From JACRDV01 sp024860865 [NCBI: Methanobacteriota archaeon] (GTDB taxonomy: Archaea > JACRDV01): 5,564 nt of DNA. The DNA lies in assembly GCA_024860865.1 (NCBI GenBank), contig JACRDV010000012.1, positions 1-5,564 of the forward strand. Reading direction: 5' to 3'. This document shows, one piece after another, positions 54 to 5,564 of the stretch. The position numbers and the translations under genes are program-made. The notes below the pieces were generated by a model. The model ran no database searches and was not told the origin of the DNA. It saw only the letters and a list, made by a program, of their open reading frames with translations. The first letter of the stretch is position 1; each line of letters starts with the position of its first letter.

Positions 54-2288
54 ATGGCTGAATATATTACTCACCCGCTAATCAAACCAAATACAATTGA
101 AGCTCGACCGTACCAACAAAGTATGCTAGCTACAGCCATCTCAAAAAATACCCTTTGTGTGCTCCCAACAGCTTTAGGTAAGACTGCACTATCTCTCATG
201 TTGGCAGCACATCGATTACAAAAATTTCCAGAATTTAAAATTATCTTTATGGCTCCAACAAAACCGCTAGTTGAGCAGCATTTTTCATTCTTTAATAAAG
301 CATTAAAAATTGAACCTGAAGGGATGGCTGTTTTTACGGGCGAAATACAACCTGAACATAGATTGCAGTTATGGGAAAAAATAAAGATTGGATTTGCTAC
401 ACCCCAGTGTGTAGAAAATGATTTAGTTTCTTCAAGGCTTAATTTGAAAAATGTTGGTTTGGTTATTTTTGATGAGGCTCATCGCTGCATTGGCGACTAT
501 TCTTACAAATTTATTGCTGACCAGTACATCAAGAATGCAACTAATCCATTGATCCTAGGGCTGACGGCGTCGCCAGGCGGTGATGAAGATAGAATAAAAG
601 AAGTTTGCCAGAATCTACATATCGAAGCCGTTGAGATCAGGAAAGAAAATGATCCTGATGTAAGGCCTTATGTTCAAAAAATTGATGCTGATTGGAGATA
701 TGTTGCTCTTCCAGAGGATTTTAAGAAATTACAACTCTGTTTAAGAAGTTCTCTTGAAAGAAGGCTCTCAACTTTACGCGAACTCGGTTATTGGAGGAAT
801 GACCAGGCAACGAAGAAAGGATTGCTAGAACTTAGAGAGAGACTTCAAGGGATTCTAAGTAAAGAACTCCAACCACCAAGAGAAGTTTTTATTGGAATTT
901 TGATGGGCAACATCGCTTTTAAAGCTTTACATGCACTTGAATTGTTAGAGACGCAAGGAACAACTGCTCTTTCAAAATATTTTGAGAGACTAATCAACCA
1001 AAAATCAAAAGGAGCGAAAACTTTCTTAAATGATAATGAAGTTGTTGAAGCCAAAATACTTTTGCGAAAACTACTGGCTGAAAATATAGAACATCCAAAG
1101 ATCCAAAAGTCCATTGAAATAATCCAAAACCAATTAAACGATAATCCCAATTCTAAGATAATTTTGTTCACTCACTTTAGAGATACTGCTGAAAAAATGG
1201 TTAACTTGCTATCAAAAATAGATGGGATAAGACCGGTTAGATTTGTAGGTCAAAGTGATAAACTCAACGATCCGGGCTTATCGCAAAAAGAACAAATTGA
1301 AATACTCGAGCGCTTTCGGTCTGGAAACTATAATGTTCTTGTAGCTAGTCAGGTGGCAGAGGAGGGTCTCAACATACCATCAGTTGATTTGGTGGTTTTT
1401 TACGAACCAGTTCCAAGTGAAATTAGAACAATTCAAAGGCGAGGAAGGACAGGCAGACTTCGCCCCGGGAAAGCAGTTGTTTTAATAGCTAAGGGGACTC
1501 GCGATGAAGCTTATTATTGGAGAAGTTTTTATAAAGAACAAAAAATGAGAAAGATACTCAATTATTTGCCAACTGAACTAAAACCTCAACCGGAGCAAAT
1601 GGCTATTACTGAATTTGCTGAGAGAAACCAAAAAATTACGATCTATGTTGATTCAAGAGAGCTTGCGTCTGGGATTGGCAGAGAGTTGTTGGAGTACAAC
1701 ATAAACATTCAATCTACTCAGTTAGAAGTGGCAGATTACTTGCTGTCTAATAGAATTGGTGTTGAGAGAAAAACAGTTGAAGACTTCTTACAATCATTAA
1801 TTGATGGGCGCTTATTGTCTCAATTAATAGAATTAAAAAGAAACTTTGCAAAGCCAATTTTAATTGTAGAGGGAGAGGACCTTTACTCCCACAGAAACAT
1901 ACACCCAAATGCAATACGCGGAGTAATAGCAAGTATTGCAGTAGACCTTGGAATGCCAATGATTTGGACAAAAGATAGGCAAGAAACAGCTGCATTTCTA
2001 TTTTCAATAGCTAAGAGAGAGCAAGAAGAGCAAAAAGTTGAAATTAGATTAAGAGGAGAAAAAAAGGCTATGACATTAGCTGAACAACAGCAATTTATAG
2101 TAGAAGGGTTACCAGGGATTTCAGCTGAGCTAGCCAAGCGCTTGCTTGAGAAGTTTGAAACAATTCGAAAAATAGTTAATGCTTCCCAAGAGGAGCTCAA
2201 AGAAGTCAAAGGAATAGGAGAAAGCAGGGCAAAAGAAATAGAAACAATGGTTACATCTAAGTATCAATCGGAAGAAAATGAGAATTAA
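54..2288 (+). CDS. hef: Hef: fused SF2 helicase and ERCC4/XPF-type structure-specific nuclease
   Basis: This 744-aa protein has the complete Hef architecture. SF2 helicase motifs seen: Walker A PTALGKT (38-44), Ia APTKPLVEQ (67-75), DEAH (140-143), TAS (171-173), IV around ILFTHF (370-375), V VAEEGLNIP (434-442) and VI QRRGRTGR (461-468). Residues ~225-345 form the helical insert between the two RecA lobes. The nuclease half shows YVDSREL (531-537), D561 and the catalytic ERK triad (571-573) followed by D577. Two helix-hairpin-helix motifs follow (LPGIS 686-690, VKGIG 718-722). Family knowledge: Hef unwinds and cleaves forked and branched DNA at stalled replication forks, and is the archaeal counterpart of FANCM/XPF. 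Length is close to that of other Hef proteins and nothing is broken. The start is the ATG at 54; only a weak AGG precedes it, and an A/T-rich box at ~25-34 would suit a nearly leaderless message. Walker A has A where related helicases usually have G (TALGKT versus TGxGKT). Identification is very secure. Confidence 0.96.
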   Translation: MAEYITHPLIKPNTIEARPYQQSMLATAISKNTLCVLPTALGKTALSLMLAAHRLQKFPEFKIIFMAPTKPLVEQHFSFFNKALKIEPEGMAVFTGEIQPEHRLQLWEKIKIGFATPQCVENDLVSSRLNLKNVGLVIFDEAHRCIGDYSYKFIADQYIKNATNPLILGLTASPGGDEDRIKEVCQNLHIEAVEIRKENDPDVRPYVQKIDADWRYVALPEDFKKLQLCLRSSLERRLSTLRELGYWRNDQATKKGLLELRERLQGILSKELQPPREVFIGILMGNIAFKALHALELLETQGTTALSKYFERLINQKSKGAKTFLNDNEVVEAKILLRKLLAENIEHPKIQKSIEIIQNQLNDNPNSKIILFTHFRDTAEKMVNLLSKIDGIRPVRFVGQSDKLNDPGLSQKEQIEILERFRSGNYNVLVASQVAEEGLNIPSVDLVVFYEPVPSEIRTIQRRGRTGRLRPGKAVVLIAKGTRDEAYYWRSFYKEQKMRKILNYLPTELKPQPEQMAITEFAERNQKITIYVDSRELASGIGRELLEYNINIQSTQLEVADYLLSNRIGVERKTVEDFLQSLIDGRLLSQLIELKRNFAKPILIVEGEDLYSHRNIHPNAIRGVIASIAVDLGMPMIWTKDRQETAAFLFSIAKREQEEQKVEIRLRGEKKAMTLAEQQQFIVEGLPGISAELAKRLLEKFETIRKIVNASQEELKEVKGIGESRAKEIETMVTSKYQSEENEN

Positions 2289-2633: not shown

Positions 2634-2993
2634 TTACTTGAATTCTTGTACTCTTCTTAATACTTGAAGCAATAAATCCATGTTTTTTAATATCTCAGCA
2701 ATTGCTTCGCTCTCGCGCTCTATCTTAAGTTGATTTGCTAACTCTCTAAGTTTTTCAGACAACACGCTTTCAAGCAGCTCAAGATCAACTTTTTCTGGGG
2801 CAGGTATTTTTGGACTTGGTGCAACTTCAGGCTTTGGTTTCTCTTCAATTGTAACTTTCTTACGGCAAGAAGGGCAGATTATTTCGCCTTGATATTCAAA
2901 AAGTGGGCTTCGACACTCCTTGCAATGATGCGCTAGCATCCGCCCGCCGGAGTACAATATTTCAACCATTTTCTCTAAATTTTGCTTTTCCAT
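2634..2993 (-). CDS. UPF0148 / autoantigen p27 (SSA1) family zinc-ribbon protein
   Basis: The 119-aa product carries a four-cysteine zinc ribbon near the N-terminus: C24-x2-C27 (HCKEC) and C40-x2-C43 (CPSC). It is preceded by the family's typical lead-in helix, ending in a GGRMLAHHC stretch like the usual GakMLdehCpkC. A Pro/Lys/Glu-rich linker (~50-67) joins it to a long C-terminal helix (68-119) with heptad spacing of Leu/Ile, likely a coiled coil. This layout matches archaeal UPF0148 proteins related to human Sjogren's syndrome/scleroderma autoantigen 1. The biochemical role of the archaeal members is not established. The ATG at 2993 has no Shine-Dalgarno, but a TATA-like box about 33 bases upstream would place the transcript start within roughly ten bases of it, so the message is probably leaderless. 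ATG at 2969 is an alternative but would cut into the lead-in helix. The gene converges with the 110-aa gene, their stop codons lying back to back in TAATTA (2631-2636). Confidence 0.88.
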   Translation of the reverse strand: MEKQNLEKMVEILYSGGRMLAHHCKECRSPLFEYQGEIICPSCRKKVTIEEKPKPEVAPSPKIPAPEKVDLELLESVLSEKLRELANQLKIERESEAIAEILKNMDLLLQVLRRVQEFK

Positions 2994-3175: not shown

Positions 3176-3448
3176 ATGCAGAAAATAAGCCCTAATGAAA
3201 AACTTAAACAAGTTGCTGAGGTTCTAGTTCAAATTGTCGAGGATACCTCAGTCCCCAGGAATATACGCAGGGCAGCAACGGAGGCACGAGATATACTTCT
3301 AAAAGAAGACCAATCGCCTGCCCTCAGGGCAAGCACGGTTATTACTATACTTGACGATATGGCTAACGACCCAAATATTCCAGTGCATGCGCGCACATTG
3401 GTCTGGAATGTAGCTAGTGAATTAGAGCCCATAGCGGTTGAAAAATGA
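3176..3448 (+). CDS. UPF0147 family protein, 90 aa
   Basis: This is a small all-helical protein of the archaeal UPF0147 family, recognised from VEDTSVPRNIRRAA (21-34) and DDMANDPNIPVHARTLVW (60-77). These two blocks look like copies of one helical unit: each has D-x-x-[IV]-P followed by a basic/alanine-rich helix, suggesting an internal duplication. Length is typical for the family. The molecular function is unknown. The start is the ATG at 3176, because AGGTGG (3166-3171) sits four bases upstream, the same spacing as in the 275-aa gene further on. The frame stays open far upstream (a GTG at 3095 would add 27 residues), but that start has no Shine-Dalgarno and would exceed the usual length. 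The gene is divergent from the zinc-ribbon gene and followed by a T-rich terminator. Confidence 0.9.
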   Translation: MQKISPNEKLKQVAEVLVQIVEDTSVPRNIRRAATEARDILLKEDQSPALRASTVITILDDMANDPNIPVHARTLVWNVASELEPIAVEK

Positions 3449-3525: not shown

Positions 3526-3575
3526 GTTATTTTTTAATACTAAACTTAATATTCCTGATCCGTGGAGTTGTTCAG

Positions 3576-4163
3576 TTGCCTAACCACACAAAATTGTTTG
3601 GCCAACAAATAACTGAAAAAATTCTGGCCATCACAAAATTAGTCGGAATTACTTCAGACAGAGAGCTTCACAAAATTTTCCAGACTATTTTTGGAAAAGT
3701 AAGCATCGAGACTTTTAAAAACCACATTGCAGAGGCCATTCAAACAAAAGATTTGATTGATGTGCCAAAGGATGTTTTAAAAAATATCCCATTTAAATCC
3801 AAAAGGTTCCTTTTGCTCGGACCTTCTGAAAGTGCTCCTAGCGATAAAGAGCTTTGGAAAAGTATTACAACACTTGGAATTACATATAGAGATCCTCTTG
3901 AATTTGTTGGTTGGGAAAAGTTAGCTGCTAAAAAGTGGCTTGCGCTAGAGCAGAAAATTAATGAGTTGAAGTCTCAATTACAAGGTGAATTAAGCCCTAA
4001 GTCAAAGCAAGCTATTGAAATAAAATATTTTGAATTAACTGTAGAATATCATCAACTTTCAAATTGGTTCTATGGAAAAATTGAAAACAATTCTAGAAAA
4101 GATTTGCTAAATATTTTAGAGACTTTAAAAGAACATTTTGATTCTCCTAAGTATATTATTTAG
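3576..4163 (+). CDS. Unrecognised 195-aa helical protein with possible N-terminal HTH (TTG start)
   Basis: I do not recognise this protein. It is predicted mostly helical, basic and cytoplasmic, with no signal or membrane segment once the correct start is used. Residues ~13-55 (EKILAITKLVGITSDREL, then FGKVSIETFKNHIAEAI) have the spacing of a helix-turn-helix of phage-repressor type, where an SDREL helix is followed by VS-x-x-T and a recognition helix. This resemblance is suggestive only. Residues 77-112 (RFLLLGPSESAPSDKELW onward) may form a small alpha/beta insert. Residues 114-190 are long charged helices (KKWLALEQKINELKSQLQ), likely coiled coil. The TTG at 3576 is preceded by GGAG eight bases upstream and by a good TATA box; longer in-frame starts would add a hydrophobic tail encoded by promoter sequence. 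Its TAG stop lies inside the Shine-Dalgarno of the next gene, so the two proteins are probably made together. It could be a regulator or one subunit of a two-component system. Confidence 0.75.
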   Translation: MPNHTKLFGQQITEKILAITKLVGITSDRELHKIFQTIFGKVSIETFKNHIAEAIQTKDLIDVPKDVLKNIPFKSKRFLLLGPSESAPSDKELWKSITTLGITYRDPLEFVGWEKLAAKKWLALEQKINELKSQLQGELSPKSKQAIEIKYFELTVEYHQLSNWFYGKIENNSRKDLLNILETLKEHFDSPKYII

Positions 4164-4171: not shown

Positions 4172-4999
4172 TTGGTTTTTTCTGTTATGCTTGGATCTAT
4201 CGGAATCTCTGCTCTTGATCGAATTGGTGCTCTCGATGCCTTCCAAAGAATTTCAGATGCTACATTGGTTGGTTTTTTAAATGAAATCTCTGAAAAATAT
4301 CCTAACCTTGCTGAAAGATTACGGCCTAGAGCATGGGAAGAAAACAACTTGCGGGCTGAATTCTCAAAGGATGAGTTGATATTTGACGAGGCTGAACGGG
4401 CCCTGAAGACAAAATTTAAGCTTGAATTGCCTGAACGGCTGCTTGAGACATGGAGTGAAAAATATGAGTTCAAACCCGTCATTAAGGTTGAGACCCATTT
4501 GAGGCTTCAAACGGGCTTAATTGAAGTTTACTTGCCTATAAAATATAACATCATTATTGAGAGAATTGGGTATATGTTAGCGCATTATTTAAAAAATGAC
4601 CCATTAGAATTTCGTAGGGTTCGATTTGATGAAACGCATTTAGATGGTTGGATTAACTGGGTAATGTTTAAAGAGCTAAGAAGCGCTAGATTTAAAGAGG
4701 TGCAAAAGGGAAATTTAAGGAATGTATATTTTAATGGATTTCAGTTAACTGAGGACCCGGACTATAAAGCATATAGAGAAAATAATTTCGGTCGGCTTCA
4801 TGCTATTAGTTTTTTAGCTGAGACTTCTTTGGATAAAACTGTTGCAATTTCAATCAGCGGAGACAAGGGCAAAATCACGGTATTTACTGAAGATTTATCA
4901 GATGTTGAGCACGCAGTAGATCGAGCAGAAGAAATTCTAGCAATAAAAAATAAGAGAGAGAACAAGTTCAACTTCATTAAAAAATTATTTTTTAAATAA
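4172..4999 (+). CDS. Unrecognised 275-aa protein, second gene of the cassette (TTG start)
   Basis: I do not recognise this protein. Residues 1-100 are mainly helical and charged (ALDAFQRISDATLVGFLNEI, then KYPNLAERLRPRAWEE). A middle region (101-165) mixes strands and helices, with IIIERIGYMLAHYL (127-140) the most hydrophobic part but too short and polar-flanked to be a clear membrane span. The region 145-215 is rich in Arg, Trp, Tyr and His (FRRVRFDETHLDGWINWVMF). Residues 222-240 (KTVAISISGDKGKITVFTE) predict a beta-hairpin, followed by helix DLSDVEHAVDRAEEILAIK and a Lys/Phe-rich tail (FNFIKKLFFK). I see no known catalytic motif, Walker box or cysteine cluster. TTG at 4172 was chosen for its AGGTGG four bases upstream; ATG at 4187 would remove five residues. 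It is coupled to the 195-aa gene and likely works with it. It converges with the 78-aa gene across a bidirectional A/T terminator. Confidence 0.78.
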   Translation: MVFSVMLGSIGISALDRIGALDAFQRISDATLVGFLNEISEKYPNLAERLRPRAWEENNLRAEFSKDELIFDEAERALKTKFKLELPERLLETWSEKYEFKPVIKVETHLRLQTGLIEVYLPIKYNIIIERIGYMLAHYLKNDPLEFRRVRFDETHLDGWINWVMFKELRSARFKEVQKGNLRNVYFNGFQLTEDPDYKAYRENNFGRLHAISFLAETSLDKTVAISISGDKGKITVFTEDLSDVEHAVDRAEEILAIKNKRENKFNFIKKLFFK

Positions 5000-5079: not shown

Positions 5080-5316
5080 TCACTTTTCAAAAATTGGCTC
5101 AACAACTTCATACGCTCGAAGTTTTCCCCTCGTTATTTTTTTCGAGAGTTCTTGGAGAAAACTCTCTCCTAAGTCATCATTCGAAACAACTAAAACGCTC
5201 TTTTGCAAGCGCTCGATTTCTAACCCAATATTCATTGCTCTTTGAATTGCTCGAAAAATTCGTGCTCGCTCTGCCCCGCTTTTACTGTCATATAAAATTA
5301 GTATTTTTGTTCTCAA
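5080..5316 (-). CDS. Unrecognised 78-aa protein, weakly Cas2/VapD-like (TTG start)
   Basis: The predicted fold is beta-alpha-beta-alpha-beta: strand TKILILYD (3-10), a basic helix AERARIFRAIQRAMN (15-29), strand LQKSVLVVS (37-45), helix ESFLQELSKKI (51-61), strand LRAYEVVEP (66-74). A YD at the end of the first strand and a Q-x-S-V second strand are hallmarks of Cas2 and of ferredoxin-fold relatives such as VapD. However, the YD-to-Q spacing here (28) is about five or six residues longer than usual, the protein is at the short end for Cas2, and no other cas gene is visible. I treat the similarity as a hypothesis. The TTG start is supported by GGTGAT (5328-5323), a strong match to the archaeal anti-Shine-Dalgarno, six bases upstream; the frame above it has no ATG, GTG or TTG before its stop. 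Palindrome copy 1 overlaps the predicted transcript start, so a repressor could control it. The opposite-strand ORF looks far less protein-like. Confidence 0.7.
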   Translation of the reverse strand: MRTKILILYDSKSGAERARIFRAIQRAMNIGLEIERLQKSVLVVSNDDLGESFLQELSKKITRGKLRAYEVVEPIFEK

Positions 5317-5329
5317 TTCATCATCACCC

Positions 5330-5343
5330 GTAACTAAAGTTAT
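5330..5343. repeat. Palindrome copy 1 (GTAACTAAAGTTAT), likely operator
   Basis: The core TAACTAAAGTTA is identical to copies 3 and 4. It overlaps the predicted transcription start of the 78-aa gene and lies just upstream of its Shine-Dalgarno, the classic position for a repressor site. It is the most diverged copy outside the core (16 of 23 bases match copy 4 over the extended unit). Confidence 0.75.
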
Positions 5344-5358
5344 GGGCCAACTATGTTC

Positions 5359-5368
5359 GTTTAAACTG
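5359..5368 (-). promoter_or_regulatory. Candidate TATA box of the 78-aa gene
   Basis: On the minus strand, CAGTTTAAAC-type sequence (AGTTTAAAC, 5367-5359) resembles the TTTAAATA box of the two-gene cassette. A start about 25 bases downstream falls around 5336-5340, inside palindrome copy 1 and some 20 bases before the TTG at 5316. Confidence 0.45.
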
Positions 5369-5396
5369 ATAATCTTTTTCAGTATATTAGATTAAA

Positions 5397-5412
5397 CGTA
5401 ACTATAGTTACG
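5397..5412. repeat. Palindrome copy 2 (CGTAACTATAGTTACG), perfect 16-bp
   Basis: This is the only fully symmetric copy: every base of the 16-mer pairs with its partner. It begins 68 bp from copy 1. Over the extended 23-bp unit it matches copy 4 at 18 positions. Confidence 0.8.
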
Positions 5413-5474
5413 CTTGGATCCAACCCCATAATTTCATGTGGAATCCAAATAATTTCGGATATTTTCCAATAGAA

Positions 5475-5497
5475 ACATAACTAAAGTTACACTAAAA
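5475..5497. repeat. Palindrome copy 3 with extended 23-bp unit
   Basis: The core ATAACTAAAGTTAC (5477-5490) begins 79 bp from copy 2. Its flanks AC on the left and ACTAAAA on the right are shared with copy 4, giving 22 of 23 identical bases. The right-hand extension is not part of the symmetry, so this unit has a direction. Confidence 0.8.
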
Positions 5498-5539
5498 ACA
5501 AGTAAAAACCATCATTGCACAGGAAATATAGGGGTGCGC

Positions 5540-5562
5540 ACATAACTAAAGTTACGCTAAAA
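5540..5562. repeat. Palindrome copy 4 with extended 23-bp unit, at the window edge
   Basis: The core ATAACTAAAGTTAC (5542-5555) begins 65 bp from copy 3, with flanks AC and GCTAAAA. The unit ends two bases before the window does, so more copies may follow. An ATG at 5562-5564 could open a further plus-strand gene, with AAATATAGG (5524-5532) as a possible TATA box. Confidence 0.8.
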
Positions 5563-5564
5563 TG

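What the first reader, a model, noticed from the sequence alone, without database searches (positions are those of the whole stretch)
5330..5555. Four interspaced copies of a 14-bp palindrome in a gene-free stretch
RTAACTAWAGTTAY occurs at 5330, 5398, 5477 and 5542, with spacings of 68, 79 and 65 bp, and I found no copy in the rest of the window. Four 12-bp cores in ~230 bp cannot be chance. The stem (5 bp, two-base centre) is too weak for an RNA hairpin, so a dimeric DNA-binding protein is the natural reader: a multi-site operator, a partition or origin iteron cluster, or a repeat array.
Basis: partly seen in the sequence, partly recalled or inferred. Interest (0 to 1): 0.65.

Follow-up and report, generated by a model that had tools for sequence, protein, structure and literature searches.

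The report
Palindromes interleaved with archaeal origin boxes
The four short palindromes sit inside what looks like the chromosome replication origin of an archaeon, woven between the boxes where the initiator protein docks, and are probably docking sites for a second, still unidentified protein that controls the copying of the chromosome.

Summary
In detail: four exact RTAACTAWAGTTAY copies at 5330, 5398, 5477 and 5542, far beyond chance. The window is a whole contig (C5). Its last 141 bases equal the first 141 of contig C20, which continues into orc1/cdc6 and the two PolD subunits (DP1, DP2). The joined 504-bp gap carries three origin recognition boxes (ORBs): one exact match to the published common archaeal motif, two with 3 mismatches. 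Two form an inverted pair around the gap's most AT-rich 60 bp. The palindromes flank and split that pair: P2, ORB(-), P3 in the AT-rich core, ORB(+), P4; P1 lies outside. UPF0147 lies just upstream of orc1 in 8 of 80 named relatives too, 5 of them also with hef, which supports the join. So the finding lies in a predicted oriC. Paired copies occur in 0 of 393 other archaeal genomes; this is the only genome held for its phylum, so conservation could not be tested. Architecturally it resembles a palindrome listed among Thermococcaceae origin motifs, with a different sequence. Operator control of the neighbouring 78-aa ORF is not excluded.

The parts
5330..5343 (+). Palindrome P1, GTAACTAAAGTTAT; outside the ORB pair, 13 bp upstream of the 78-aa ORF's TTG start
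   Evidence: exact match
5398..5411 (+). Palindrome P2, GTAACTATAGTTAC, perfect (16 bp with its flanks); 11 bp from ORB(-)
   Evidence: exact match on both strands
5423..5442 (-). Origin recognition box, 3 mismatches to the published common archaeal motif, G-string pointing outward (left)
   Evidence: motif from PMC4164010
5447..5506 (.). Most AT-rich 60 bp of the intergenic (78% AT), between the two inverted ORBs: candidate DNA unwinding element
   Evidence: 2.0% of 60-bp windows in the flanking genes are as AT-rich
5477..5490 (+). Palindrome P3, ATAACTAAAGTTAC, inside the AT-rich core
   Evidence: exact match; also on C20:54-67
5516..5535 (+). Origin recognition box, 3 mismatches, G-string pointing outward (right)
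   Evidence: same site as C20:93-112
5542..5555 (+). Palindrome P4, ATAACTAAAGTTAC, 6 bp from ORB(+)
   Evidence: exact match; also on C20:119-132
5424..5564 (+). 141 bases identical to C20:1-141; the locus continues on C20 with a third, exact ORB (C20:292-311, composite 5715-5734) and orc1/cdc6 (C20:398-1624)
5080..5316 (-). 78-aa ORF, TTG start, GGTGAT Shine-Dalgarno-like stretch read by eye; no clear family; its promoter region would hold P1 and P2
   Evidence: weak hits in 2 of 393 other archaeal genomes; low-confidence alpha/beta model
4172..4999 (+). 275-aa ORF (269 aa from 4190 was searched) without family; distant paralogue on C25 of the same genome
3564..4163 (+). About 199-aa ORF (start codon uncertain), uncharacterised protein family that recurs beside UPF0147 and/or orc1 in other archaea; possible origin-associated DNA-binding protein
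3176..3448 (+). UPF0147 (PF03685), conserved upstream neighbour of orc1
2634..2993 (-). Auto_anti-p27 / SSSCA1-like zinc-ribbon protein (PF06677), conserved neighbour
54..2288 (+). Hef-type helicase/ERCC4 nuclease, conserved neighbour
   Evidence: DEAD, Helicase_C, ERCC4, HHH

Best explanation
The four palindromes are part of the chromosomal replication origin (oriC) of an archaeon of a poorly sampled phylum. They are binding sites of a symmetric (dimeric) DNA-binding protein other than the Orc1/Cdc6 that reads the ORBs. Three of them bracket and split the core: P2, ORB pointing left, AT-rich segment containing P3, ORB pointing right, P4. A protein on P2-P4 would contact or crowd Orc1 on both ORBs and sit on the DNA that must melt, so it most likely regulates origin firing (block, release, or help assembly) rather than a promoter. 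Shown here: the exact copies, their single location in the genome, the ORBs, the AT-rich core, the link to orc1/cdc6-DP1-DP2 and the conserved neighbourhood. Inferred: origin activity, dimeric reader, regulatory role and its sign.
For: Four exact copies against a shuffle maximum of 1; single cluster in the genome. C5 and C20 share 141 bp end to start, the only two places that match; P3, P4 and one ORB lie on C20 itself, on the same contig as orc1, so the link does not rest on the join alone. C20 encodes Orc1/Cdc6, DP1, DP2. ORBs: exact match to TCCA[CG]T[TG]GAAA[TC][GA]AAGGGGT (PMC4164010 Table 1, passages) at C20:292, two with 3 mismatches at 5423(-) and 5516(+); genome-wide 7 distinct places with up to 3 mismatches, 3 of them here, control 0. 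AT-richest 60 bp of the gap lies between the inverted ORBs. UPF0147 lies 614-1225 bp upstream of orc1 in 8 of 80 named loci, 5 of them with hef as well. Thermococcales origins carry another palindrome interleaved with ORBs, 12 of 27 loci with 2 or more copies, 7 of 27 with a 68-79 bp spacing.
Against: No reader protein identified. No relative of the same phylum held, so the palindromes' conservation is untested. The palindrome is absent from the origins of other lineages, also of those that share the 199-aa neighbour family. P1 and P2 would fit an operator of the 78-aa ORF. GC skew has the same sign on both arms (+0.067 and +0.085), so no skew switch supports an origin here, though only about 5 kb a side could be read. 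The AT-rich core is not extreme (2.0% of genic windows match it).
Confidence: 0.6

Rival explanations
1. Operator array: the palindromes are sites of a transcriptional regulator (perhaps autoregulatory) of the leftward 78-aa ORF; the position in oriC is incidental.
For: P1 is 13 bp from the ORF start, and an AT-rich TATA-like stretch (read by eye) lies between P1 and P2; the ORF has a GGTGAT Shine-Dalgarno-like stretch. The ORF and the palindromes are both lineage-specific as far as could be seen.
Against: P3 and P4 are about 160-240 bp upstream of the ORF start, far for an archaeal operator (recalled), and their placement fits the ORBs better. The low-confidence fold of the 78-aa product is beta-alpha-beta-beta-alpha-beta, not an obvious DNA binder. 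Regulators usually have other targets, yet no second cluster exists.
Confidence: 0.2
2. The palindromes are read by an Orc1/Cdc6 itself: a variant ORB for Orc1, or sites for the second Orc1/Cdc6 paralogue (C6:5245-6402).
For: Winged-helix Orc1 proteins bind ORBs of dyad symmetry (PMC9738581, passages); the genome has a second orc1/cdc6; P2 and P3 are preceded by AAAC, and P3 by an ORB-core-like TTCCAATAGAAAC.
Against: ORBs (TCCA..GAAA + G-string) and RTAACTAWAGTTAY share no core. No core with 0-1 mismatch was listed on C6 next to the paralogue. The crenarchaeal Orc1-2 element ANTTTC (PMC9738581) is not contained in the 14-mer.
Confidence: 0.12
3. Centromere-like (parS/SegB-type) sites near the origin, used for chromosome segregation.
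For: Origin-proximal clusters of palindromes are how bacterial parS works (PMC5120986, passages), and archaeal SegB reads a palindrome (PMC12284271, passages).
Against: No ParB_N match in the genome, although the control rings in 10 of 14 genomes. SegB's motif TCTAGASTCTAGA is different. The three AAA_31/ParA-type hits read as two CooC-like proteins in a CODH/ACS-like operon and one lone MinD-like protein (names from reading the translations). The assembly is about 92% complete, so a missing gene is possible, and SegB itself was not searched with a model.
Confidence: 0.06

Closest known systems
Archaeal Orc1/Cdc6-dependent oriC (Pyrococcus type: oriC directly upstream of cdc6, near replication genes)
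   Same: Intergenic directly upstream of orc1/cdc6, ORBs with G-string, inverted ORBs around an AT-rich core, DP1/DP2 downstream
   Different: Carries four copies of a non-ORB palindrome around and inside the core; lineage without a close relative in the collections
Thermococcaceae third origin motif AATG[ACT]ACA[AT]A[AGT]ATG[TA][TG]CATT (Ori-Finder 2, PMC4164010 Table 1)
   Same: Palindrome, several copies in the orc1-upstream origin, interleaved with ORB matches, spacings of 68 and 76-79 bp occur
   Different: Different sequence; also 34-bp spacings; listed there among ORB motifs, without a function
Haloarchaeal oriC1 G-rich inverted repeat (Haloarcula hispanica, PMC3936714)
   Same: A non-ORB inverted repeat inside an inverted ORB pair; mutating it lowered origin efficiency
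   Different: G-rich and one inverted repeat, not four dispersed AT-rich palindromes
Bacterial origins with regulator sites among initiator boxes (CtrA at the Caulobacter origin; recalled, search listing only)
   Same: Works-like comparison: a second DNA-binding protein's sites interleaved with initiator boxes gate firing
   Different: Unrelated proteins and domain of life; not a membership claim

Membership tests
Archaeal Orc1/Cdc6-dependent oriC | Intergenic region next to an orc1/cdc6 gene | tested here: met
   C20:398-1624, Cdc6_C and Cdc6_lid; P3, P4 and two ORBs are on the same contig
Archaeal Orc1/Cdc6-dependent oriC | Several ORBs | tested here: met
   1 exact and 2 with 3 mismatches to the published common motif
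Archaeal Orc1/Cdc6-dependent oriC | AT-rich unwinding element flanked by ORBs | tested here: met
   78% AT 60-bp window between inverted ORBs; modest, 2.0% of genic windows reach it
Archaeal Orc1/Cdc6-dependent oriC | Extreme of the disparity/skew curve | tested here: inconclusive
   Both arms have positive GC skew (0.067, 0.085); only about 5 kb each side
Archaeal Orc1/Cdc6-dependent oriC | Orc1 binding and initiation in vivo | not testable with these tools
   needs binding and marker-frequency data
Thermococcaceae origin palindrome | Sequence AATGNACAWANATGTNCATT | tested here: not met
   best matches within the own origin region have 6 mismatches
Thermococcaceae origin palindrome | Several copies interleaved with ORBs upstream of orc1 | tested here: met
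   P2-ORB-P3-ORB-P4
SegAB / ParABS centromere | SegB motif TCTAGASTCTAGA or a ParB with its parS | tested here: not met
   motif differs; ParB_N 0 hits in the genome
SegAB / ParABS centromere | segAB gene pair | tested here: inconclusive
   3 AAA_31 hits, none read as SegA next to a SegB-like gene; SegB not searched; assembly about 92% complete
CRISPR array | Longer repeats with near-constant unit length | tested here: not met
   14-bp repeat, spacings 68, 79, 65, with ORBs in the spacers

The most novel reading that the evidence does not exclude
Archaeal origins of several lineages carry, besides ORBs, their own palindrome set read by a lineage-specific dimeric protein that gates Orc1 at the origin: an archaeal counterpart of bacterial origin gatekeepers. 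Here it is RTAACTAWAGTTAY in a lineage alone in its phylum, in Thermococcales AATGNACAWANATGTNCATT. The uncharacterised 199-aa family encoded between UPF0147 and orc1 would be one candidate for an origin-associated partner.
Probability: 0.35. Interest if true: 0.75.

Novelty: new variant of a known kind. Interest (0 to 1): 0.5.

Why it matters
How archaea control the firing of Orc1/Cdc6 origins is little known. A second, symmetric element that brackets the ORBs and sits in the unwinding region gives a concrete handle: a defined 14-bp bait for finding the protein, and defined sites to mutate. The parallel with Thermococcales, where laboratory strains and genetics exist, makes the general question testable even though this organism is not in culture as far as I know.

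Tried and rejected
Generic dispersed repeat: rejected, a single cluster in the genome. Assembly artefact: rejected, the 141-bp C5/C20 identity is an end-to-start contig overlap and no third place matches. The overlap does mean that the assembly graph branched here. RNA element: no Rfam match in the window. CRISPR: wrong repeat length and spacing. Plasmid origin: no match of window 5083-5564 to the plasmid collection.

Motif in other origins: exact core looked for in all 142 loci then held; outside the array only C81, C11 (own genome, TAACTACAGTTA) and one single TAACTGAAGTTA in L052 appeared. Repeated exact 12-mers containing a dyad: 11 of 79 orc1-upstream regions (own included) against 0 of 79 controls. 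Of the 11, seven are ORBs themselves (L076, L078, L087, L091, L094, L101, L133), L064 is AT-rich, L130 lies behind a small ORF and was dropped, which leaves own and L066. One search read 16 unnamed loci in the wrong orientation; it was superseded and is not used as evidence.

Reader hunt: the 78-aa, 269-aa and 199-aa ORFs have no Pfam match up to E = 10 other than one sub-cutoff hit for the 269-aa. NCBIfam gave only hits far below cutoff: purH for the 199-aa, and a secretion-effector domain at 16 bits against a cutoff of 38 for the 78-aa; taken as chance. The 199-aa single-sequence model has mean pLDDT 48 and the 78-aa model 62, so no fold search was run. The 199-aa family is not the obvious reader, because the origins beside its homologues in G011, G181 and G107 lack this palindrome.

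Literature: the 12-mer TAACTAAAGTTA appears in 3 held papers, by their titles none on archaeal origins (listing only). No held paper describing this element was found; subscription journals are mostly not held.

Full report
What was checked. The 14-mer RTAACTAWAGTTAY is present exactly at 5330, 5398, 5477 and 5542. Shuffled windows give 0.0003 exact sites on average, maximum 1 in 3000; shuffled intergenic DNA never repeats a 5+2+5 palindrome more than twice in 5000 trials, against 4 here. With up to 3 mismatches the window is only mildly enriched (10 strand-matches, 8 of 200 shuffles reach that). In the whole genome the exact 14-mer occurs outside this locus once, at C81:690, where the reversed control also gives one hit; near-copies are at control level. 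P1, P3 and P4 have the AA centre on the same strand; P2 is perfectly symmetric.

Where it lies. The window is all of contig C5 (5564 bases). C20:1-141 is identical to C5:5424-5564, and a search with window 5320-5564 finds only these two places. Reading on into C20 gives orc1/cdc6 (Cdc6_C, Cdc6_lid), PolD DP1 and PolD DP2. P3, P4 and two ORBs are physically on C20, so the link to orc1 does not depend on the join. The join is further supported by synteny. Of 80 named orc1 loci (the best 80 of 330 relatives; 44 of them reach at least 5.5 kb upstream), UPF0147 lies 614-1225 bp upstream of orc1 in 8. Five of these also have a Hef match upstream (one of them partial) and four an SSSCA1 match; L125 has UPF0147 and SSSCA1 on the other side.

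The origin. Between the 78-aa ORF and orc1 are 504 bp (5317-5820 in the joined sequence). The common ORB motif of Ori-Finder 2 (PMC4164010, passages read) matches exactly at C20:292-311 and with 3 mismatches at 5423-5442(-) and 5516-5535(+). Genome-wide there are 7 distinct places with up to 3 mismatches (8 rows, one site counted on both contigs) and none in the control. The most AT-rich 60 bp of the gap (5447-5506, 78% AT) lies between the inverted pair, though 2.0% of windows in the flanking genes are as AT-rich. Upstream enrichment of ORBs was checked on the 80 named loci: with a recalled consensus and up to 4 mismatches, 80 hits within 1.2 kb upstream of orc1 (0.87 per kb) against 37 elsewhere (0.05 per kb). 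The GC skew does not switch sign between the two arms.

Anatomy. P1 5330-5343; P2 5398-5411; ORB(-) 5423-5442; AT-rich core with P3 5477-5490; ORB(+) 5516-5535; P4 5542-5555; third ORB at 5715-5734; orc1 at 5821. P2 and P4 lie 11 and 6 bp outside the G-strings of the inverted ORBs, and P3 sits near the middle of the pair. This is the main reason to read the palindromes as part of the origin rather than as a promoter element. P1, and possibly P2, could still serve the 78-aa ORF.

Who else has it. The two-copy pattern TAACTNNAGTTA-N40-70-TAACTNNAGTTA matches this genome and 0 of 393 other archaeal genomes; no other genome of the phylum is held. An Orc1 tree places the lineage, on a long branch, near Methanofastidiosia, Hadarchaeota and Thermococci (91/85 support). 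Ori-Finder 2 lists, for Thermococcaceae, a palindromic third motif AATG[ACT]ACA[AT]A[AGT]ATG[TA][TG]CATT. In 27 loci that I took as Thermococcales-like (five of them unnamed, and L066, which the tree puts beside Hadarchaeota), 12 have two or more copies with up to 4 mismatches, 7 have a spacing of 68-79 bp, 6 a spacing of 34 bp, and 10 have none. The density is 55 strand-hits in 31.9 kb against 6 in 87.3 kb of other origins and 3 in 130.8 kb of coding control. The sequence differs from that of the window; the architecture is alike.

Candidate readers. Between UPF0147 and the origin this genome has three ORFs without a family: 199, 269-275 and 78 aa. The 199-aa product has distant relatives in 11 of 344 other genomes. 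Of 9 loci fetched, 7 have UPF0147 beside it, and 3 (G011, G181, G107) have it directly upstream of orc1. It is thus an uncharacterised origin-neighbourhood family, and two relatives begin with what looks like a winged helix by eye. The origins beside these relatives do not carry the palindrome, so it is a candidate partner at most. The 269-aa product has only a distant paralogue in the same genome (1 of 345 genomes). ParB_N is absent, and the ParA-type hits do not read as SegA.

Verdict. Predicted oriC: about 0.93. Palindromes read by a dimeric non-ORB protein: about 0.8. Main role in origin control rather than transcription or segregation: about 0.6. New variant of a known kind: archaeal oriC with an added palindromic element set.

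Noticed in passing
L169:1545-1564 (G000:C76:6844-6863, minus): An ORB with 1 mismatch lies just upstream of an MCM helicase gene (ORF from L169:1613, intein-like insertion after the GKC Walker-type stretch, read by eye): Orc1 may also act at the mcm promoter.
   Followed up: partly
L170:1499-1518 (G000:C86:5398-5417): An ORB with 2 mismatches upstream of a 133-aa ORF of unknown function.
   Followed up: no
window 3564-4163; L172-L180: Uncharacterised protein family encoded between UPF0147 and orc1, in 11 of 344 other genomes; directly upstream of orc1 in three lineages.
   Followed up: partly
L066, 535 and 471 bp upstream of the orc1 match: Two identical 42-bp copies of a large dyad (12-bp arms CAAACAACTAAT/ATTAGTTGTTTG), 64 bp apart, in the origin of Thermococci archaeon B88_G9.
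   Followed up: partly
L153-L155, L157, L158, L160, L161: Seven IMG/VR contigs (about 45% GC) share GTTATAACTATAGTTAC-type palindromes 64 bp apart, in most with a third copy 67 bp away; no similar record in the phage collection. Probably convergent.
   Followed up: partly
L159:4063-4780: A viral contig with 16 copies of TAACTNNAGTTA, often at multiples of 20 bp.
   Followed up: no
L149 (G000:C52): CODH/ACS-like operon with two CooC-like ATPases (names from reading translations), which suggests a Wood-Ljungdahl-type metabolism.
   Followed up: no
L144:1207-1710, L145: The 78-aa ORF's only weak relatives (34-35% identity) are longer proteins in two genomes of one genus (f42 g52); two other genomes of that genus gave no match to this Orc1.
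   Followed up: partly
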